Positions 15,233 through 48,210 of a stretch of 64,000 nucleotides of DNA are shown one piece after another. The DNA is from Letharia columbiana (Eukaryota; Ascomycota; Lecanoromycetes; Lecanorales; Parmeliaceae). The stretch is taken from positions 620,001 through 684,000 of the forward strand of contig NW_023501043.1 of assembly GCF_014066305.1 (NCBI RefSeq), in the 5' to 3' direction. Position numbers and translations under genes: made by a program. The number at the start of each line of letters is the position of its first letter. Position 1 is the first letter of the stretch. Under the pieces are notes generated by a model. The model searched no databases, was not told where the DNA came from, and worked only from the letters and a program-made list of their open reading frames with translations.

Positions 15233-15237
15233 CTATC

Positions 15238-15379
15238 TGTCATGAGATGCCTCAGGGACACTCATAGGGCCACTAGCGTAGGCTTGGCACCGCACATATC
15301 TGCCTGCAGACCACATAGATTAATCAACATCTTTTACACCACACACATATATGAGTCAAACCATAATGATTCCTTAACA
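15238..15379 (+). repeat. Left LTR (142 bp)
   Basis: TG...CA ends, identical to the right LTR at 16415-16556 by eye. An LTR of this length is at the short end for fungal retroelements. Confidence 0.93.
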
Positions 15380-15381
15380 AT

Positions 15382-15395
15382 TGGTAGCAACACCT
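15382..15395 (+). other. Primer-binding-site-like sequence
   Basis: TGGTAGCAACACCT starts two bases after the left LTR. TGG followed by a tRNA 3'-end complement is the usual layout; which tRNA is not determined. Confidence 0.55.
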
Positions 15396-15564
15396 GGCCC
15401 TACTTCATAGGATATCCAGGCGTCATCAGACGTTTACGCAAAGCCTGCATCAACACCTAATAGTGCAACGCTCCAAGCCGGACCTCTAACACACTCGCTG
15501 TCATCGAGTACCTTTTGACAAAACCCACGCCCACATCGATCCTTTCGCTAGGCCTATCGATATC

Positions 15565-16245
15565 ATGAATTCATACGCTGCAAGACTTGCCTCATTCACG
15601 TCATGGCCACACGTATGTCCAAGTGCCTCTACCGTAGCCCGTGCTGGCTTTCATCGAGAATACGACCCTACTTTTCCATCTCCGGATCTCACTGTATGCT
15701 CACTATGCGGTCTTGATCCCTGTGACTGGGACAGTGACGGTAGTCCATTCGATTTCCACGCTACTCGATCACCGGAGTGTCCATTCGTACGTGCAATACA
15801 GCAGAAGAAGAAGCACCGGAATCAAAAGACTCGCCAGCAATATAAGAGGTCTCTACAAGCCGTCCAGCCAGCTATCCAGCCAGCCACTCAGCCAATCACT
15901 CAGCCAGCTCACCAATCCACTCAATTAGCCACTCAGCCAGAGCACTCAGTTGAGCAAGAGGAGGAACTACAACAGGCAAATGCGGAGAACACGGCGGAGA
16001 AAGCAAGCGGCAGCAAGGCCATCAGCACCAAGAACACGGCTCAGCTCTCTACGATCCCACGTCAAGTCATCACTCAGCAAGCGGAGAACACCACTGCAAC
16101 TTGGCCTATCATCCCCACTGCATTGATATGGTACATCACTGCAATGACGAAACAAGAGAAGGATCTACTGCGACGATCACAGCCAATTGGGCCACTGCAG
16201 GAGGACATCGGACGATGCATATTTGGACGAATTAAAACCGTCTGA
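15565..16245 (+). CDS. BIR-domain protein encoded inside the LTR retroelement
   Basis: The 226-residue ORF opens with MNSYAARLASFTSWPH. Residues 7-75 fit the BIR (baculoviral IAP repeat) fold: R-x3-F-x2-WP at the start, ARAGF at 25-29, then zinc ligands C45, C48, H65 and C72, which give exactly C-x2-C-x16-H-x6-C, with W55-D-x-D and CPFV after the last ligand. A basic stretch follows (KKKHRNQKTRQQYKRS), then Gln/Pro/Thr repeats of the form QPAxQPxTQ and an acidic region. In other fungi, BIR domains occur in Bir1/survivin-type chromosomal passenger proteins. Here the ORF takes the place of all retroelement genes, so it is probably captured host coding sequence. There is no RING or other partner domain. 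A biological function of this copy is unproven. Confidence 0.85.
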   Translation: MNSYAARLASFTSWPHVCPSASTVARAGFHREYDPTFPSPDLTVCSLCGLDPCDWDSDGSPFDFHATRSPECPFVRAIQQKKKHRNQKTRQQYKRSLQAVQPAIQPATQPITQPAHQSTQLATQPEHSVEQEEELQQANAENTAEKASGSKAISTKNTAQLSTIPRQVITQQAENTTATWPIIPTALIWYITAMTKQEKDLLRRSQPIGPLQEDIGRCIFGRIKTV

Positions 16246-16414
16246 TGTCGTGCTCCGGTACTATTCGAAGGGTTTCACTGCGACAGAAGATCTCGGGGGA
16301 ATCACACCACTAATTAGCACGGTGTCTCCATTTCTTTCCGGTTTTTCGAAAAGAACCATGCATGCATACTTCTTGCCATGAGGACATGGCATTTCTCTGT
16401 TTTTTGTGGGCAAT

Positions 16415-16556
16415 TGTCATGAGATGCCTCAGGGACACTCATAGGGCCACTAGCGTAGGCTTGGCACCGCACATATCTGCCTGCAGACCACATAGATTAA
16501 TCAACATCTTTTACACCACACACATATATGAGTCAAACCATAATGATTCCTTAACA
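16415..16556 (+). repeat. Right LTR (142 bp)
   Basis: Identical to the left LTR. It is preceded by TTTTTTGTGGGCAAT, at best a weak polypurine tract, and followed by the CTATC duplication. Confidence 0.93.
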
Positions 16557-16575
16557 CTATCGAGTAAGTACTTTA

Positions 16576-17281
16576 GAGCCCCTTCTGCAACCACATATTT
16601 TGGAAATAACCCCTAGATATTTCCACTAATTTTCAGCTTAGCGTCAAATATATACAGGGTATCGTTCTGTAACCATATTTCCACATATTTTCGCTTATTA
16701 AGCGAAAACAGGCTTGAAAATATCTGAAAACAACCCTCGAGGGTTGTTTTCAGCCAAAATAAGGCTAAGAACGCCAAGAATAGTGGACATCTATGACCGA
16801 TATATATATATTATTCTCTTTTTCTTATCCATGCTTCAGATTTGAAGCCGGTGTCTACTCTCTTGCTAAGACGATATTGTTGTACCATTTCGAAATGTTG
16901 CCTTCATAGTCTGGCTCCAAATCATAGGCAATGAGACACCGGTACCGGTAGACATGGAGCAGGCTCATTTGGGGCAATAATGGGAGTAATAGGAGTACCA
17001 ATGATAGTCAAAGCCTGTGCAGCAGTAGCAGCAGGTATCTCGGCCATGGTGATGTGGAATGGTAGGAATTCAATGGTTTTTTACGGAGAAGACAATTTTT
17101 GCGACGATTCTGACTCAGCCTCAGAAACAGGGTTACAGAACGGAACCGTACACATATTCTACTTGTTTTGGAAATATTCTAGCGTTATTTTCAAGCCTTG
17201 TTTTCATTAGCCAAGTGGTGGCGTTATTTAGTGGAAATAAGTAGGGGTTATTTCCAAAATATGTGGTTGCAGAAGGGGCCC
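16576..17281. mobile_element. Harbinger-like MITE (706 bp) with TTA duplication
   Basis: The left end, GAGCCCCTTCTGCAACCACA at 16576, and the right end, complement GGGCCCCTTCTGCAACCACA at 17281, match for about 40 bp. They are flanked by TTA (16573-16575 and 17282-17284). A three-base TWA target and a GG/GAG start are typical of PIF/Harbinger. The longest frame inside (16980-17210, 76 codons) shows no transposase motif, so it is non-autonomous. Confidence 0.8.
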
Positions 17282-17284
17282 TTA

Positions 17285-19756: not shown

Positions 19757-22700
19757 CACACCCCAGTCAGCTATCAATACTGCAATACAACACAAGGAAA
19801 TCCAGAACGGTCATGGTAGAACTCTTCGATAATGAAAAGATCTATGACATCGATATAGTAGCAATTCAGGAGCCCTGGAGAAACACCAACACAAACACGT
19901 CGTATCATCCCCTGAAGGATAGATTCAACTTGATCTACCCCTACCATAACAACACACGAGTGTGCTTCTATATCAACAAGAGAATATCACCAAAGCAATG
20001 GTACCCATCATATCACTCACCGGACCTCTGCACTCTTAACATCAAGTCCGAAAACAATAGAATTATACGCATACACAACATCTACAACCCCGGCGACCAA
20101 CAAACAGACGGACTTGACGAATTACATGAGACGCTTGCGAAGTCTAAGGATGACGAACAGATCATGCTAGGCGACTTCAATCTTCACCACACGATGTGGG
20201 GGGACCGGATGCTCGTATCGATGAGAGAGCAGAAGAACTAATACTCATAGCGGAAGAATTCGCCATGGAACAAGCATTGCCAGTAGAAACGGTGACATAC
20301 GAAGAAAACTGTCAAACAACAATAGACCTACTATTCGCCACTCCAGCACTAACAGCAAATGTCATTAACTGCAATATCGGAAATGATTTCGAAAGCGGAT
20401 CTGACCACCTCCCAATTCTCACAAAGCTTGAGCTGGCCGTGATGGAGTTAGCACCAACGACACGCCGAAACTTCAACAAACTGGACGCCGAGGTCCTGAG
20501 AGAGACACTCGCTAGAGCCATGGCATCGAAAGAGTGCCTAGCCAATCCCCAGGGGAATGGTGAAAACCTCACTAACGATGGCATCGATCATCAAGTAGCG
20601 GCCATTATTGACTCTATCCAAGCGGCCATAGAGGAGTCCACTCCGGTCATCAGGTTGTCGCCACGGTCTAGACCGGGATTCACGCCAGAATGTAAGGAAG
20701 CACAAAGGCGTTGCAAATCGCTGAAAAGAAGCTGGAGAACGACGCTCTCGGAGGAAGCATGGGATGAGTATAAAGTCGCCAAGAACTTCAAAAACAACCT
20801 GATCAAGAGAACTACCAGGAAGGCGTTCAGAGAGTTCGTGGCAGAGGCGTGTGAGTCGCCGCAAATGATGTGGAAAAAGACCAAGTGGGCCAGAAAACAA
20901 CTTACAACACAGGCGTGTCTCCCTCCGCTATTTGACAAAGATAAACGAGAATACAACGAACCAGGCCCGAAGGCAGATCTTCTTATGAGAACGTTCTTCC
21001 CACCACCGGTACAGGCGGATTTAGATGATATCAGCGTCGACACGGCGTACCCACAAGCCTACCTGATGGGCACGATCACCGTGAATGAGATAAGAAAGGC
21101 CATAACGCAGGCACCGTCAAAGAGAGCACCGGGGGAGACGCGATCCCCAACCTGATTCTCAAGGAGATCCTGGAGCCGTTACTCCCTCATCTACATAGAA
21201 TATTCAATGCATGCATGACGAACGGCTACTGCCCAGAGCACTTTAGGACATCGATAACAATTGTCCTTCCGAAGCCGGGCAAGGACCACTCGATTCCTAA
21301 AGGATACCGGCCAATAGCTCTGCTTAACACCATAGGAAAGGCAATGGAGTTTATTCTTGCTAGGAGAATAGCGTATCTTGCGGAGACACATGGACTCCTA
21401 CCGGCCACACACATGGGAGGCCGTAGATTACGGTCATGTGAACACGGCATCCACTACCTTCTAGAAAGGATATATCAGGCCTGGAACTCTGACAAAGTAG
21501 CCACGATGTTACTGCTAGACGTTTCAGGTGCATATGATAAAGTCTCTCATCCTCGACTGCTCCACAACCTCCGAAAGCGAAAAATCGACACGAGAGTAGT
21601 TAACTGGGTAGAATCGTTCTTGTCCAATAGGACAACAGTGCTGAAAACAAGCGAACACTCCACACCAAAGACTCCCATAGCAACCGGAATTCCTCAAGGA
21701 TCACCGCTGTCGCCCATACTTTACCTCTTCTACAACTCAGATCTCATTGATGAATGTAACAGTCGCGCCGACTTAGGAACGGTAGCCACCGGCTTCGTAG
21801 ACGACATAGGCCTTCTGACAGTGGGAGACTCCACCGAGGAAAACTGTAACGCACTCCGCAAAATCCACGACGAAGTTTGTATGAAGTGGGCGTTACGACA
21901 CGGATCGGAGTTTGATCCCAGCAAATATCAACTGCTGCACCTCAGTAGAAAACAGAGATTCAGCTTAGACCATCCCCTGCAACTCAACGAGAGGCAATGC
22001 ATTGAGGCGAGACGCTTTGTCCGCTATCTAGGAGTCGAAATCGACTCTAAACTTCTATGGAGCCACCACAACAAGGAGATTCGGTCTAAAGCTACCAAAA
22101 GCATCGGTGCACTGGCGAGGATTGCCGGATCGACGTGGGGTGGCAACTACAAGAGCATGAGACAGCTCTATCAGGCGGTAATTATCCCACAAATGACGTA
22201 CTGCTGCTCAGCATGGTACCAGCCCGAAGACACTGCCGGCCACAACAAAACTCACCTCTCATCGCTACAAAGGATTCAATCTCAGGCAGAGAGGAAGATA
22301 ACTGGAGCATTCAAGGCCACATCCATTCCAGCACTCGATATAGAAGCGCACCTCCTACCAGTTAAACAACAGCTAGACAAGATCACCTCGGAAGCTGTCT
22401 TACGAATCGCCACTAGTCCAGCATATGGCGAGATCATTAAGCCACGTTTCGAGCGATGGAAGTCCAAAAGAAAACCCAAGAAGAACAGGAAACTGAGTCC
22501 ACTGGAGCGACATACCAACAGATTCGAAGAACGATACGGCGACACCAATAAGATTGAGAAACTACGCCCTTTCAGCGCCGCTCCCGACTGGGAGCCTCCC
22601 AAAACGATAATTCATAAGACCAAGAAAGCCGCCAAAGAACTGGCCAAAAGATCGATTGATGAGGGACATGCAATGATATACACAGACGGCAGCGGGATCA

Positions 22701-23692
22701 ATAAAAAGGTGGGAGCATCAGCTGTATCGTCAGACATTGGTTCTACTTTCAGTGTCTATTTGGGCTCAAGCGACTGGTACACGGTGTACTCGGCGGAGCT
22801 GCATGGTATTCTTCAAGCTCTAACTATGGCAGCCGTGCACCAAACAAGGCTGCAACTCAGCAGAGTCATAGTGAACACGGACAATCAAGCATCGATTCAG
22901 GCTATCGGAGACCCGGGCAAGCACTCGGGGCAGATCTATGTGATACAGGCAGTACAGATCATCAATTCGCTAAGGCATCTCGGGGTAGCAACAGAATTAC
23001 ACTGGATCCCGGCGCACATCGGTATCGACGGCAATGAATGGGCGGACAGGGAGGCGAAGAAGGCCACTGGCTGGCGAGAGCGAGTGGTCCATAACAAAAG
23101 AGTGGAGGTAAACACTAACGAAACAGCCCAATTGTCAGTCATACAGGTAAGGATGATATCGACGGTTAAGACAGCTATCAGGGACCACGCGATGGAACAA
23201 TGGACTATCGAATGGGCCAACGAGAAGCGAGGCGGCATTCTTAGAAGGATCCAACCAACACCGTCGAAACAAATACAACTTCTGCATTCGAGAGTCAAGC
23301 GCGCTAAGACGTCGCTGATAACGCAAATGAGAACCGAGAAAATAGGTCTCAAGGCCTTTCTTTATAACCGATGGGTACCGGATATAGAGGATGAAGAATG
23401 CGAGTGTGGAGCGAAGCAGACGGCTCGGCATATCCTTCACGAATGTAGGCTGTTCAGCAAGAAGCGAGGAATGTGGTGGGCCGAAGAAAGAAGGAAGGTG
23501 AAAGAGGGGGTTATTACTCACAAGGACATGCTAACAAAGCCGCGCTACGCCTCTATGGCGGCGGACTTTATAAGGAGTACTGGGCTTATTGGGCAATATC
23601 AAGCCCTTGATGAGGACCAACAACAAGGATTCACTAGGGTGGGCGGTCAAAAAGAAGGACACGGTCAAGACGGGAGGGCCCCAGCGATGTAG
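19750..23692 (+). pseudogene. LINE ORF2: endonuclease, reverse transcriptase, RNase H; two frameshifts
   Basis: Three frames join into one protein of about 1,310 residues. Part 1 (19750-20205) is the APE-like endonuclease with QEPW and LGDFNLHH. Part 2 (20196-21140) completes it (SGSDHLPI) and enters RT. Part 3 (from about 21135) holds the RT core (KGYRPIALL, LLLDVSGAYDKVSHP, GIPQGSPLSPILY, GFVDDIGLL as the YADD box), RNase H (YTDGSG, SAELHGILQAL, NTDNQASIQAI, WIPAHIGIDGNEWAD) and a C-terminal CxC-x7-H-x4-C motif. Each junction lies at a G run that is one G too short (TGGGGGGACC at about 20197 and CCGGGGGAGA at about 21129), so the lesions are single-base deletions, real or from sequencing. 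Otherwise the ORF is intact. Confidence 0.88.
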
Positions 23693-32350: not shown

Positions 32351-34042
32351 TCAGTCGTGAGTCTGGTGCCGCGGACCGTCGTCGTTCATTTCTTGCGCTC
32401 GAGACGCTGACTCGAGGACCGCGAGTCGATGCAGCCCTCGTGGAAACCGGCGTCTTGGCTTTATTTCGTCTGGTTCCTTCGCTGGAGGCTTTTTGCGGAG
32501 CCCGACGGTGGCCGTAGTGTGCGATGTATTCGGCTCGGGATCCGACCGCTTTGAGAGCGGTTGCTTGTCGGAGTCGGATGCTTTGGGCTTTTCTTCTTCG
32601 GCGGGTCCTGCTTCTGCTTCCGCTTCCGGTGCTGTTGCTCCACGAGTCTGTTCCGGCGACTGAATCTCTGCGTCAGAGTCTGTGGGATCGTTGTCCCGAT
32701 CGTCCAAGGCGCCCGGCTCAAGTTCTTCGGTATCCTCATATTCCTGCATCTTCGCCCCCTTTGCCTTCTCGAGTTCCTGCTCCAATTCCTCAATGTATTC
32801 GATGGTCTTGCAAACGACATCCGAGTCGTCCCCAAGACACACTACTTCCTCCTCCAGCTCCAAGTGCGCAAACGTCAACGCTTCCTCGAAATTCCCTCGG
32901 CCCCGGAGATAGTCCGCTGCGTCGCGGTACGGCGTCATCAGCTCCCCATGCAATCCTTCCTCTTTGATAAGATCTATCAGTTGCAAGACCGGCGTTAGAG
33001 GGTCTTGCAGTCCGTAGACCAGCAGCGCCTCGTTCAGCATGGACTGAAACATGATGATCTGGTCGTTGAGAGCCTTCATGACGAGACGGCGCTCCTCGCT
33101 CGCTTTTCCAGAGGCGGTTTCGGTCTGACATGCCGGGCAACCGCAGTAGAAATTGTAGATGCGGAGCTCGGATTGGCGCTGGTCTCGTGTGCAGAAGGCG
33201 CGTCCGTAGCAGATTGTCATCTCTTCGCCTTTTGGAATGTCGGTCATGCTGTGCAGGACTATCTCATCGCGCTTCTCGCTCCAGGAGTAGTAGATGTTGG
33301 GGAGGCAAGAGTGGTTGAATCGTGTCGCGGTTAAGAACATGGCGGCCGCGGACCCAATGTTGAAGCAATTGGCCTCGAAAATACACATGACGTCGATCAT
33401 GTTAGTATTGTCCGAGCGATTGGGGCAGTGCAACTGCATATACTGTTGTCGTCTTGCAAAGGGCATGCGCTGAAATTCTTCGAGGACTGTTCGAGCATTG
33501 TATGGCTTGGTGACAACGAAGAATGGCTTATCGACTAGAACGCGTTCTCCTTTGACGACGTGTCGAGCAGCGAAAACACCCTGGCCTTTTCCCGGCGATT
33601 CCTTGATTATATAGGGGCCAATTGGGTCCGGAGACCGGTAGGGTTGCCTCGATTCCCCGCCATCGATGAGCATGGCGTCTGTGACGGCCGGGCTAGCTGC
33701 AGTCTCCACCAATGGCAGCTGACAGTCATATCCTGCGGCGAGCCAGATGTTGACGATGGCGTCCATATCAAGCACTTCAGATTCTGGAAAATTGACAGAT
33801 CCATCGTTCATGGCCTGGGGAGGAACCTCTGACGAAAGTATACCCCATAGGATTGCAGGGCCGGCAAATGGCCTTTTTACAGTCTCGTTGGGTTGGGCGG
33901 TTTCTTGTTGTTCCTGAAACGCCAGGTCCGTGGTTGCGGCATCCAGTGAGCCATTTTCAGCTTCATTTGCCACGCCGCATTCAGAATGTCGCTTGCACTC
34001 TGAGATCAGGATACCCCAGAGAATCGCCGGGTTGAGAAGCAT
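32351..34042 (-). CDS. SET-domain protein, SMYD-like (563 aa)
   Basis: A single uninterrupted frame with ATG at 34042. Residues about 140-290 form the SET domain: GKGQGVFAARHVVKGERVLV at the start, RFNHSCLPNIYYSW (NHSC is the pseudoknot and cofactor motif) near 245, a GEEMTICYGRAF block, and a post-SET-like CGCPACQ with zinc cysteines. An alpha-helical part follows, then an acidic, Pro/Glu-rich disordered tail and a basic end. SET proteins of this type methylate lysines on histones or other proteins; the substrate is unknown here. The N-terminus has a repeated PAILWGIL motif (residues about 5-12 and 61-68), which looks like an internal duplication. No lesions, so it is probably functional. 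Confidence 0.85.
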   Translation of the reverse strand: MLLNPAILWGILISECKRHSECGVANEAENGSLDAATTDLAFQEQQETAQPNETVKRPFAGPAILWGILSSEVPPQAMNDGSVNFPESEVLDMDAIVNIWLAAGYDCQLPLVETAASPAVTDAMLIDGGESRQPYRSPDPIGPYIIKESPGKGQGVFAARHVVKGERVLVDKPFFVVTKPYNARTVLEEFQRMPFARRQQYMQLHCPNRSDNTNMIDVMCIFEANCFNIGSAAAMFLTATRFNHSCLPNIYYSWSEKRDEIVLHSMTDIPKGEEMTICYGRAFCTRDQRQSELRIYNFYCGCPACQTETASGKASEERRLVMKALNDQIIMFQSMLNEALLVYGLQDPLTPVLQLIDLIKEEGLHGELMTPYRDAADYLRGRGNFEEALTFAHLELEEEVVCLGDDSDVVCKTIEYIEELEQELEKAKGAKMQEYEDTEELEPGALDDRDNDPTDSDAEIQSPEQTRGATAPEAEAEAGPAEEEKPKASDSDKQPLSKRSDPEPNTSHTTATVGLRKKPPAKEPDEIKPRRRFPRGLHRLAVLESASRAQEMNDDGPRHQTHD

Positions 34043-34862
34043 TTGACCTTCCTATAATCCCTTGGCTTTAGACGTGTTGAAAGCCATGGCGGGGCTTGAC
34101 CTACCATGGCGCCAATCCTTGCCGCTGCTGCTTAAAGTAGATCTTCGGATGCGGTAATCTCTCCTAGAGCAAATCAATCCAGAAAATGCAACAATCCAAG
34201 CCTTGCGAAAGTTCACAGTCTATAAGTCCAATGTTCTGGCTTGGGATTGCTGAACAGCGATGAAAATGCTGGCTGGATATAGATTTATGATAGCGATACC
34301 ACACTGAGACAGATTGTGTCGGAGTATGACGGTCTGAGAGCTGTTGAAATGGGCAAGTTGTCTGTGGCCTTGTAGCTGCGGAAGCGGTGCTCACTGAGAA
34401 CACAGAAGTGATCGACGGAGAAGTGATGACCGACTAAGAAGATTTAAGAGAATGGTGATGGAGAGAGTGAATATGGGGGAGTGCTCGTGAGATCGACAAA
34501 GAGAAAAAAAGTGATCGGAGAAGCGTGTCGGAGAGAAGTAGTCAAAAGTAGTCAAGTGGCCGATAGAGAAGAGAAGAAGATTGAGAGGTTGGCTGTAGTC
34601 CTTCAGGTTAAGTTTGTATCTGTTAGAGAAGCTTCAGGTGTTTCTTCCCAGCAGATATCTCGCGGGCAAACCCGCCCATGGCAGTAAGCACCATACTCGC
34701 ACTCTGCAGAGCGCGACATCATGGAGAGTGACGAAGCCTGCTAGGACATTCATCACTTTCCAGAGGTTGAAGAGTCGTAGTCCCGAATTAGTTGTCACAT
34801 TCATGAAAAACACGCGTCAATGCACGCATAGGGGCCCACATAGAGTGTAGATAGTGGTTGGG
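34043..34862. promoter_or_regulatory. Upstream region of the SET gene
   Basis: About 800 bp without a supported gene, leading away from the ATG at 34042. Purine-rich stretches (GAGAAGAGAAGAAGATTGAG near 34570) are visible; no TATA box or known operator is assigned. Confidence 0.4.
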
Positions 34863-45605: not shown

Positions 45606-45790
45606 GGTTTTGGTATGTAGGAAATATTCACTCCCTGCGTACATTGTAGCACTAACTGCGACTGCGGAGTGGCCATTAAATCTACCCTATCAAATTCAAA
45701 TACTCCTCCCATTTGACTTTGTACGATTACCGACTATCCTCCTAGTAGTACGCACTCGGTTCACCTACCTGTACTCCCTTTCCTACAGTT

Positions 45791-48210
45791 ATGCCACCAG
45801 GACGGCCCAAGAAAGACGTAGAGTCACACAAGGAGTTCATCCTCCACCTTCATGACCAGAACAAGGAGTACAAAGAGATCTTACGACGTCTATCTACTCA
45901 GCGCGGCTTTAACATCAGTAAGAATGTGCTCGAGCAACACCTGCGGATATGGGCCAAGAAACGCTACGATAAACCAGAGTGCAGGGACGAGACACTCCGC
46001 GATGCTCTCATTGCGACTCTGTTCCTTCAGCAAAACGCAAATGATAAAGAGATATTAGTGGTACTGGAGGCGAAGGATCTACGTGTGACTTCAGATAAGC
46101 TCCGGCGATTGAGAGTGGCAATGGGTTTGAGAAGAAAACGTCCGCTGAAGGATGCTCGCTCTCATGATGAGGAGATTATACGCATTATCACAGAGCATCT
46201 GGATCAGGGTGTCATTGGTGGCTGGGCCCTCACGCATCTTTACGCATACTTTCGTCGTAACGGTGTGTTTATCTCGAGGAACGATATCATGTACACCTTA
46301 AGACTCGTGGATCCGGAGCGCGTCAGTGGTAGATACCAGAAGAAACAGCACAGAAGGAAGAAGTTTTTGGTAGCCGGCCCCAATGCTATATGGTCAGTTG
46401 ACGCCCACTGCAAGCCAGAGATCATTGGCATTCAGATCTACGCCGTGATCGATGCGTACTCCCGCAAGGTCATCTGGATCTATGTGGGAGGCTCCGGACG
46501 CACAGCTGTCAGCGTCGTAAAGCAGTTTTTGATGTATATGGAAGAGCATAAGATTATGCCGGAAAGGTTTCGTTCAGACCGGGGTGTTGAGACCATCCTT
46601 ATTGCCGATGCATTTCATCAATTGTGTGAAGTACAAGAAGATCGATCGGAAGAGGATCGTGCCATTGAGAAGTGCTGGATGTTTGGCAAAAGCACCGCTA
46701 ATCAACGTATTGAATCTTGGTGGATGCATCTACAGTCCTCACAACTCCGTCAATGGGTGCTCTTCTTCGACCGGTTGAAGGAGGAAAACCACTTTGTAAA
46801 GGATCGGCTAGCGGATACCATTGCTGTGTACGCTATCTATATGCCCTTGGTTCGAGCGGAGGCCTTTGAGTTTGTTAAGAATTGGAATGAGCACCGAATT
46901 CGCAAGCAAAAGACTCGCCCGCATGTGACTTCCGGTTTGCCATGGTTTATGTACGAATATCCCGAGGAACCAGCGGTGGACTGCTCCAGCGTACCGAATC
47001 CTGACCTTGTTGATACACTTCATCAAGAAGTGGAAGCATACGATCTGGATGAGTACCTTCCCGCGGTGACACTACAGTGGTGTCATGAGAAGATGCGATC
47101 GCTTAGTTTTGATCCGGCAACTTTGACGGCAAAGGATGTACTTGAGGAGGAGGGAATGGGAAGACGTGTGCACGGTCACGTTTTTGTCCTTCTCAAGCAG
47201 GAGGTCGAACGGCATCTCGCTGTGGGTAACAACAGTCCAACCCTGACGTTAACGCAGATACCAAAGGGAGCTGGGTCTTGGAAGCCTTCTGAAAAGGCTA
47301 TGACAGCCTTTCATGAGGCTTAGAGGAATGAGGAGCCAGCGGAGTTCAGGGATCACATGGATAATGTTCTTGCAGAGTCAGATGATGAGAACTATACGTC
47401 TGAGGGCGAATTACATTTTCATACCCCAAACTATGCGATCCTTACAAATTCATACCCCATCTTACATTTTCATACCCCAATGGGGTATGAATTTGTAAGA
47501 TGCCATTAATAGGGGTATGATTATGTAAGTTGCCATCTACAGGGGTATGATTTTGTAAGTTGCCATAGTGGCCTGGAATTGCTACCTAAGGGCCTACTTT
47601 CGAAATTTTGCAGAGGCTTTGAACCATCAAGGAGAGGATTAGAAGTAAGGGAATCTCTCCGACCGCATCTAATGAAAATTTTAACAGCTCCAAGACATCA
47701 GACGGAAGCCGAGCGGGCCAACTCGAGGGCCAAACGCAAGCACCCCACCCCACAACACCACACCACACCACCGTCATCGACAGCGGAGTCGACGACCACT
47801 ACCTGACGCTCAGTGGAGCCTACCGACCGCCATCTGCCAGGCAGCTACCGCTATCGTTCAAGACCCCCGTCCTCTACCTCTCTTTGGCATATCACTAACT
47901 AAGGTGACAGAAGCCCGTCGTCTTTGACCACCACTACGTCCTCTGGTACACTTTACACTTCCAGGGCACAGGGACGGCTACATCTACAAGTTGGTGGCAT
48001 CTTACATTTTCATACCCCAAGAAATGGCAACTTACATTTTCATACCCCAAGTAGTGGCAACTTACAAATTCATACCCCATTTTTTTGGTGAGGGGTATGA
48101 AAATGTAAGATGGGGTATGAATTTGTAAGGATCGCATAGTTTGGGGTATGAATTTGTAATTTGCCCATACGTCTGAGGGTCAGGCATCGGTCGACGGTGA
48201 GGAAGGTTAA
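45791..48210 (+). pseudogene. Retroviral-integrase-like DDE transposase gene, broken
   Basis: A 510-residue ORF (45791-47323). N-terminal part (1-120): two HTH-type segments beginning MPPGRPKKDVESHKEFIL, as in fungal proteins of the integrase-core group. Residues about 195-380 form the RNase-H-fold catalytic core: WSVDAH (D204), YAVIDAYSRKVIWIYVGGSG, RSDRGVET (D263) and STANQRIESWW (E308), a complete DDE triad. After the TAG at 47321 the same frame continues open for about 26 codons to the A MITE. After the MITE and its duplicated target ATACGTCTGA it goes on as EGQASVDGEEG to TAA at 48208-48210. So the original protein was about 550 residues, and lost its tail by a stop mutation (probably CAG to TAG) and an insertion. 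The core is intact, so the shortened protein might still fold. Confidence 0.85.
47404..48166. mobile_element. Family A MITE, intact copy 2 (763 bp)
   Basis: It starts GGGCGAATTACATTTTC and ends TTTGTAATTTGCCC. The flanks are ATACGTCTGA at 47394-47403 and 48167-48176, a perfect 10-bp duplication. It is near-identical to 6089-6874 except for a 23-bp deletion (after GGAGAGGAT, near 47640) and scattered substitutions. It interrupts the tail of the integrase-like gene. Confidence 0.92.

What the first reader, a model, noticed from the sequence alone, without database searches (positions are those of the whole stretch)
15238..16556. A tiny LTR retroelement that carries a BIR-domain gene instead of gag-pol
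Seen directly: two identical 142-bp LTRs, CTATC duplications, a TGGTAGC primer-binding-like site and one 226-codon ORF. Residues C45, C48, H65 and C72 give exactly the BIR spacing C-x2-C-x16-H-x6-C, with R-x3-F-x2-WP and AGF in the right places. BIR domains are otherwise known from IAPs and Bir1/survivin. A non-autonomous retroelement spreading a BIR protein could affect cell death or chromosome segregation control, or simply be a carried passenger. I know of no described fungal family of this kind, but I could not search.
Basis: partly seen in the sequence, partly recalled or inferred. Interest (0 to 1): 0.92.

Follow-up and report, generated by a model that had tools for sequence, protein, structure and literature searches.

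The report
Mini-retroelement with swappable BIR-domain cassette
In a lichen-forming fungus, a tiny virus-like jumping element carries a cell-death/chromosome-type BIR protein domain fused to what looks like a leftover of its own coat protein; relatives carry other front-end modules in the same slot, and the BIR part is still being preserved by natural selection.

Summary
Confirmed and extended. It is one of a family: of 15 two-LTR copies examined (this one included), 14 have 5-bp target duplications. Eleven of the 15 carry BIR; the other four carry, in the same slot, unrelated N-terminal modules (three) or a Gag capsid (one). Cassettes, leaders and tails have recombined between copies. The BIR module is under purifying selection between unbroken copies (e.g. 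15 synonymous: 5 nonsynonymous changes, neutral expectation 5.6 synonymous), and heavily mutated copies show no such excess. The shared C-terminal tail is only weakly constrained and may hold a short relic of Gag capsid. A Gag-only and a gag-pol element in the same genome share the primer-binding site and are plausible helpers. BIR-plus-tail proteins occur in L. lupina and, down to 42% identity, in unnamed sources. I read it as a non-autonomous LTR element whose Gag N-terminus was replaced by a host-derived BIR that now serves the element. What the BIR binds is unknown. No description was found in the searches made.

The parts
15233..15237 (.). target-site duplication CTATC, left copy
15238..15379 (+). 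5' LTR, 142 bp, TGTCATGA...TTAACA
   Evidence: identical to 3' LTR; 40 scored matches in the genome out of 126 first-look candidates, a lower bound
15382..15397 (+). primer-binding-like site TGGTAGCAACACCTGG
   Evidence: TGGTAGCAACACCT is found in 21 of 68 loci including gag-only L074 and gag-pol L077; primer tRNA not identified
15380..15564 (+). 5' leader, shared by BIR, non-BIR and gag-only members
   Evidence: 95% identical to gag-only element L074 over 186 nt
15565..15849 (+). BIR cassette, residues 1-95
   Evidence: Pfam PF00653; purifying selection
15850..16245 (+). TQP-rich linker and shared C-terminal tail of the ORF, to the stop codon; residues 183-211 align to Gag capsid
   Evidence: 197 matches to the ORF in the genome (capped list), most of the listed ones to the tail part only; hhalign 34 columns, E 2.1e-4, probability 46%
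16207..16414 (+). 3' region shared with gag-only members (its first 39 bases are still coding in this copy)
   Evidence: 80% identical to L074, 83% to L023, 75% to L075
16395..16414 (+). conserved pre-LTR stretch in the place of a polypurine tract, not canonical
   Evidence: GTGGGCAAT in 14 of 15 two-LTR copies
16415..16556 (+). 3' LTR
16557..16561 (.). target-site duplication CTATC, right copy

Best explanation
It is a non-autonomous LTR retroelement related to Gag-only elements, probably of Ty3 type. Transcription runs from LTR to LTR. The RNA is primed at the TGGTAGCAACACC site, packaged by Gag supplied by other elements, reverse transcribed and inserted with 5-bp duplications. Its one ORF makes a small protein: a BIR domain of host origin in the place of Gag's N-terminal coiled coil, then a TQP-rich linker and a degenerate tail that may keep a remnant of capsid. 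Recombination between family members, most likely template switching between co-packaged RNAs, swaps this N-terminal cassette, so one LTR family carries BIR, other modules or a Gag. SHOWN: LTRs, target duplications, many copies, the BIR domain, cassette and segment exchange, purifying selection on BIR. INFERRED: helper-driven mobilisation, template switching as the route, the capsid remnant (suggestive), the Ty3 kinship (from capsid likeness), and that the BIR protein helps the element by docking RNA, particle or integration complex to a host partner. This last step is the least certain; about 0.35 on its own.
For: LTR, TSD, ORF; 14 of 15 two-LTR copies have a 5-bp TSD (L014 and L023 after completing the LTR ends). 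BIR. Modules: of 68 loci tested, BIR in 16 (one a 27-aa fragment), Gag capsid in 9, coiled-coil CC_MPTF in 6, MQ in 3, Gag-N coil in 2, MASN in 1, a longer MNTI family in 26, none of the seven in 9; some loci hold two. Exchange: L013 (BIR) and L017 (MQ module) share tail 96.0%, 3' region 99.5%, LTRs 98.6/96.5%, but leader only 82.8% and the cassette is unrelated (38.5%); L017 and L021 share the MQ cassette at 97.4% but tail 83.5% and leader 85.4%; L012 (BIR) and L021 (MQ) share the leader at 97.2%. Selection (2000 random placements of the same changes): L010-L022 15 synonymous:5 nonsynonymous, neutral mean 5.6; L010-L013 13:5, 5.2; L013-L012 14:8, 6.2; no simulation reached these values. Heavily mutated L030/L043 pairs: 12-17 synonymous against 18.7-21.9 expected. 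Host source: nearest host BIR L071, 44% over 81 aa. Helpers: Gag relatives inside stop-free 2197- and 2335-aa frames that also hold RVT_1; same 14-nt primer site in L074 and L077. The Gag model (pLDDT about 88-97 in the capsid) has dArc1 and PNMA2 capsids as its five best PDB matches.
Against: No pol-bearing element with this very LTR was found; L077 shares a 15-nt match at the primer site and no LTR similarity at E 0.01. The tail-Gag match is short and only 46% probable. The Gag model's PDB matches all have Foldseek E >= 0.056, and Pfam finds no Gag family in L079, L076, L077 or L074 pieces. The tail shows only weak coding constraint (11 of 55 pairs at P < 0.05). Of 15 near-complete BIR modules 7 have stops. 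Pairwise selection tests share lineages and are not independent; pairs with the more diverged copies L018, L027 and L029 are weak (P 0.05-0.62). No expression or transposition data. The primer tRNA was not found and there is no canonical polypurine tract.
Confidence: 0.7

Rival explanations
1. Passenger capture: the BIR fragment is a neutral hitch-hiker spread by an active LTR element, as with plant retroelements that carry host gene pieces.
For: Other copies carry different or no BIR; of 15 near-complete BIR modules 7 have stops; the tail is only weakly constrained.
Against: Two- to threefold synonymous excess between unbroken copies, absent in pairs with heavily mutated copies; zinc ligands invariant down to 42%-identical relatives.
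Confidence: 0.15
2. Recurrent capture: BIR looks constrained because it was taken several times from a conserved host gene, not because the element needs it.
For: A host gene with the same N-terminal pattern exists (L071).
Against: The BIR profile search of the genome lists 17 matches: 11 in element copies and 6 in four other loci; the nearest of these four is 44% identical to the element BIR. Relatives share the same fusion into an RNxxTRxQY-type linker, also P0016, P0024 and P0033.
Confidence: 0.07
3. The BIR protein acts for the element as a cell-death or stress brake (IAP-like), favouring survival of cells with active copies.
For: BIR family membership.
Against: A single BIR, and Pfam shows no RING or other known IAP domain. 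The acidic residue four after the conserved Trp, D in NAIP BIRs, host L071 and P0033, is G59 here; that this residue binds peptide N-termini is recalled.
Confidence: 0.08

Closest known systems
TR-GAG elements (terminal-repeat retrotransposons with GAG; described in plants, PMC8704663, abstract and passages seen)
   Same: LTR elements with one ORF and no pol that can transpose; the present genome has Gag-only members (L074, L023, L075) with the same leader and 3' region.
   Different: Here the Gag N-terminus is replaced by BIR or another module and the capsid is at most a relic.
TRIM elements (PMC4717578 and PMC13317346, passages seen)
   Same: Short LTRs, small size, non-autonomous, 5-bp TSDs; PMC13317346 cites a TRIM that captured a P450-like gene fragment.
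   Different: TRIMs are described there as having no coding capacity; this one has an ORF with a selected domain.
Maize Bs1 (PMC13317346, passages seen)
   Same: LTR element with host gene pieces fused into a chimeric ORF.
   Different: A plant element without BIR; not known to me as a set of interchangeable cassettes (recalled).
RLG_Kyoko/RLG_Beelzebufo pair (lichen alga; PMC12542154, passages seen)
   Same: Non-autonomous and autonomous LTR pair.
   Different: There the pair was inferred from conserved LTRs, primer site and polypurine tract; here only the primer site ties the element to a gag-pol element. No BIR mentioned in the passages seen.
Bir1/survivin and NAIP BIR domains
   Same: BIR zinc ligands and core.
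   Different: Single BIR on a mobile element, joined to a tail shared with other family members.

Membership tests
BIR domain (PF00653) | profile match above curated cut-off | tested here: met
   42.5 bits against 22.9
BIR domain (PF00653) | C-x2-C-x16-H-x6-C zinc ligands | tested here: met
   C45 C48 H65 C72, invariant in A1
BIR domain (PF00653) | BIR fold | tested here: inconclusive
   AlphaFold mean pLDDT 50.5; no fold search made
IAP cell-death inhibitor | inhibits death or binds IAP-type peptides | not testable with these tools
   one sequence hint against: G59 in place of D
LTR retrotransposon | paired LTRs with target duplication | tested here: met
   14 of 15 two-LTR copies
LTR retrotransposon | primer-binding site matching a tRNA 3' end | tested here: inconclusive
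   conserved site, but no tRNA found with two patterns
LTR retrotransposon | polypurine tract before 3' LTR | tested here: not met
   the conserved GTTTTTTGTGGGCAAT is not purine-rich
TRIM | short element with LTRs of about 100-250 bp (range recalled) | tested here: met
   1319 bp, LTR 142 bp
TRIM | no coding capacity | tested here: not met
   226-codon ORF with selection on its BIR part
TR-GAG | single ORF encoding full Gag | tested here: not met
   BIR plus tail; at most a 34-column capsid remnant
element with a known autonomous partner | gag-pol element with same LTR | tested here: not met
   L077 shares the primer site only; the search was limited to Gag relatives

The most novel reading that the evidence does not exclude
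A fungal retroelement family uses interchangeable N-terminal cassettes in place of Gag's head as docking modules. The BIR cassette hijacks a Bir1/survivin-like interaction (chromatin or the chromosomal passenger complex) to bring the element's RNA or integration complex to chromosomes, playing the part that chromodomains play in chromoviruses (comparison recalled). Exchange of cassettes lets the family change host contacts.
Probability: 0.13. Interest if true: 0.92.

Novelty: new variant of a known kind. Interest (0 to 1): 0.72.

Why it matters
Non-autonomous LTR elements are usually treated as empty parasites. Here one carries a host-type domain kept by selection, and its relatives show the same slot filled by other modules, apparently by recombination. 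That makes a testable system for how retroelements gain, swap and keep host domains, and a possible new use of BIR outside cell death and chromosome segregation.

Tried and rejected
Whole-BIR-gene idea: rejected; the module ends near residue 95 and joins a tail shared with non-BIR copies. Tail as a constrained domain: weak; 11 of 55 pairs at P < 0.05, one at P < 0.001, though most pairs lean the same way. Identical LTR in a pol-bearing element: not found; search by Gag instead gave L076-L078. Primer tRNA by two patterns: nothing convincing. AlphaFold on the ORF: too poor for a fold search. Protein search with the host BIR L071: only itself. Gag profile against PDB sequences: nothing significant. 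Ten paper searches listed no paper whose title or abstract start describes such an element; combined 'BIR domain' with 'LTR retrotransposon', and their 5 hits looked unrelated from the listing. These cover open-licence PMC papers only. Seven papers were opened for passages (name six of them; none was read whole). Rows dropped: of 97 proteins, 21 entered A3 with the window ORF and 11 entered A4 with the window ORF and host P0098; of 57, 15 entered A2 with L076 and L077. Selection was run on 10 non-redundant BIR rows (L012 stands for the identical L015, L016, L020; L030 and L043 left out), and on 16 chosen pairs. The ORF has 197 genome matches, not all listed; of the 60 loci L009-L068, 58 hold the tail. 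The module census is thus a sample chosen by score, and L073-L080 were chosen for Gag or gag-like sequence.

Full report
WHAT IS THERE. Two identical 142-bp LTRs (15238-15379, 16415-16556), CTATC on both sides, and one 226-codon ORF with a Pfam BIR match at E 9.6e-11. The window is contig C8:620001-684000 of a 52-Mb assembly in 161 contigs. Lengths of C95 (105482) and C8 (1343376) equal the contigs of proteins named Letharia columbiana HO173, so this is a lichen-forming fungus.

IT IS A FAMILY. The LTR has 40 scored matches out of 126 first-look candidates, a lower bound. I cut out 15 loci with two LTRs (L009-L023, the window's own copy being L010). Fourteen have 5-bp target duplications (L014 and L023 after completing the LTR ends); L012 does not. 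Eleven of 15 carry BIR. L017 and L021 carry an unrelated MQ module, L011 a MASN module, and L023 a mutated Gag. Of 15 near-complete BIR modules, 8 have no stop, 5 have one to three and 2 have six. L012, L015, L016 and L020 are identical over the module although LTRs among them differ by up to about 3%.

THE ORF IS A FUSION. Residues 1-95 are the BIR cassette; the rest is a TQP-rich linker and a tail that has many matches elsewhere in the genome, behind other N-termini. Gag-only relatives (L074, L023, L075) have the same leader (95% over 186 nt to L074) and 3' region (80%, 83% and 75%). Their Gag has an N-terminal coil, a Q/P/T-rich linker and a capsid. A profile of 22 tails aligned to a profile of 17 Gags gives one match: 34 columns, E 2.1e-4, probability 46%, at the place expected if the tail is a worn-down Gag. 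I take this as suggestive. The Gag model is confident in the capsid (pLDDT about 88-97); its five best PDB matches are dArc1 and PNMA2 capsids, with PEG10 and Arc lower, all at E 0.056 or above. Pfam names no Gag family in these proteins, though one source calls P0099 (the L079 Gag) a retrotransposon gag domain protein.

SEGMENTS HAVE BEEN EXCHANGED. L013 (BIR) and L017 (MQ) are 96.0% alike in the tail, 99.5% in the 3' region and 98.6/96.5% in the LTRs, but 82.8% in the leader and unrelated in the cassette. L017 and L021 share the cassette at 97.4% while tail and leader are 83.5% and 85.4%. L012 (BIR) and L021 (MQ) share the leader at 97.2% (all). Template switching between co-packaged RNAs is a known route to such chimeras (PMC13317346, passages seen); that it acted here is inferred.

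BIR IS KEPT BY SELECTION. I counted changes between copies and placed the same changes at random 2000 times (16 pairs). For: L010-L022 15 synonymous and 5 nonsynonymous (neutral mean 5.6 synonymous), L010-L013 13 and 5 (5.2), L013-L012 14 and 8 (6.2), L010-L019 14 and 7 plus one stop change (6.2), none reached by simulation; L010-L012 11 and 7 (5.2; P 0.0025), L022-L013 8 and 4 (3.6; P 0.0065), L012-L014 6 and 3 plus one stop change (2.6; P 0.013). Weak or against: L022-L012 10 and 10 (P 0.043), L010-L027 13 and 17 (P 0.047), L010-L029 12 and 17 (P 0.089), L010-L018 9 and 14 (P 0.15), L012-L029 5 and 14 (P 0.62). The four pairs with heavily mutated L030 and L043 show no excess (P 0.97-1.0). 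pN/pS is 0.10-0.29 between L010, L012, L013 and L022, and 0.36 pooled over all 45 pairs of 10 rows. The tail shows weak constraint (11 of 55 pairs at P < 0.05). The coiled-coil cassette is unclear (2 of 10 pairs at P < 0.05) and MQ has too few changes; Gag capsid codons show an excess in 14 of 15 pairs.

AGE AND ORIGIN. Of 97 related proteins, those with a listed name are L. columbiana or L. lupina; the others are unnamed. P0033 (42% over 92%) keeps both BIR and the LLRRSQP tail, while P0016 and P0024 keep BIR and the RNKKTRQQYKR linker. So BIR has been joined to this kind of protein for a while. The BIR profile search lists 17 genome matches: 11 in element copies and 6 in four other loci. The nearest of these, L071 (one open frame over the domain), is 44% identical over 81 residues. 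A single old capture from a relative of this gene is the simplest origin.

WHO MOVES IT. Two stop-free frames of 2197 and 2335 aa contain both a Gag relative and reverse transcriptase. L077 (the start of the 2197-aa one) has the same TGGTAGCAACACCT site; no LTR similarity was found. A closer helper may be lost, missing from the assembly, or missed by my Gag-based search.

WHAT BIR MAY DO. Its conservation on an element that depends on others says it helps the element or its RNA in some way. By position it replaces Gag's coil, so a docking role is my first guess (about 0.35). The acidic residue four after the conserved Trp, D in NAIP BIRs, L071 and P0033, is G59 here, which weakens a classic IAP-peptide role; that this residue binds peptides is recalled.

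NOVELTY. Gag-only and gene-carrying LTR elements are known, in plants by the papers seen (PMC8704663, PMC4717578, PMC13317346, passages). A BIR-carrying LTR element with exchangeable cassettes was not found in ten searches of open-licence PMC (listed under Tried and rejected). I file it as a new variant of a known kind.

Noticed in passing
window 16575-17282: 55-nt inverted repeats, 95% complementary, 598 nt apart, right next to the element: MITE-like.
   Followed up: no
window 20154-23692: Two overlapping open frames with endonuclease, reverse transcriptase and RNase H domains: looks like a non-LTR element.
   Followed up: no
window 45749-47323: 524-codon frame with a Clr5 domain fused to an integrase core (rva_4).
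   Followed up: no
window 32351-34051: SET-domain open frame in the repeat-rich window.
   Followed up: no
L070 (C25:180900-182500): Host-like open frame of 292 aa with two BIR matches followed by what looks by eye like a C2H2 zinc finger.
   Followed up: no
L041, L053, L047, L048: A larger family (MNTI module) in which the same tail is repeated in tandem and read in more than one frame.
   Followed up: partly
P0004, P0012, P0013, P0015 (Letharia lupina): Public gene models lack the zinc-binding core of BIR, perhaps through a wrongly predicted intron.
   Followed up: no
L012: Two-LTR copy without matching target duplication, possibly a recombinant between copies.
   Followed up: no
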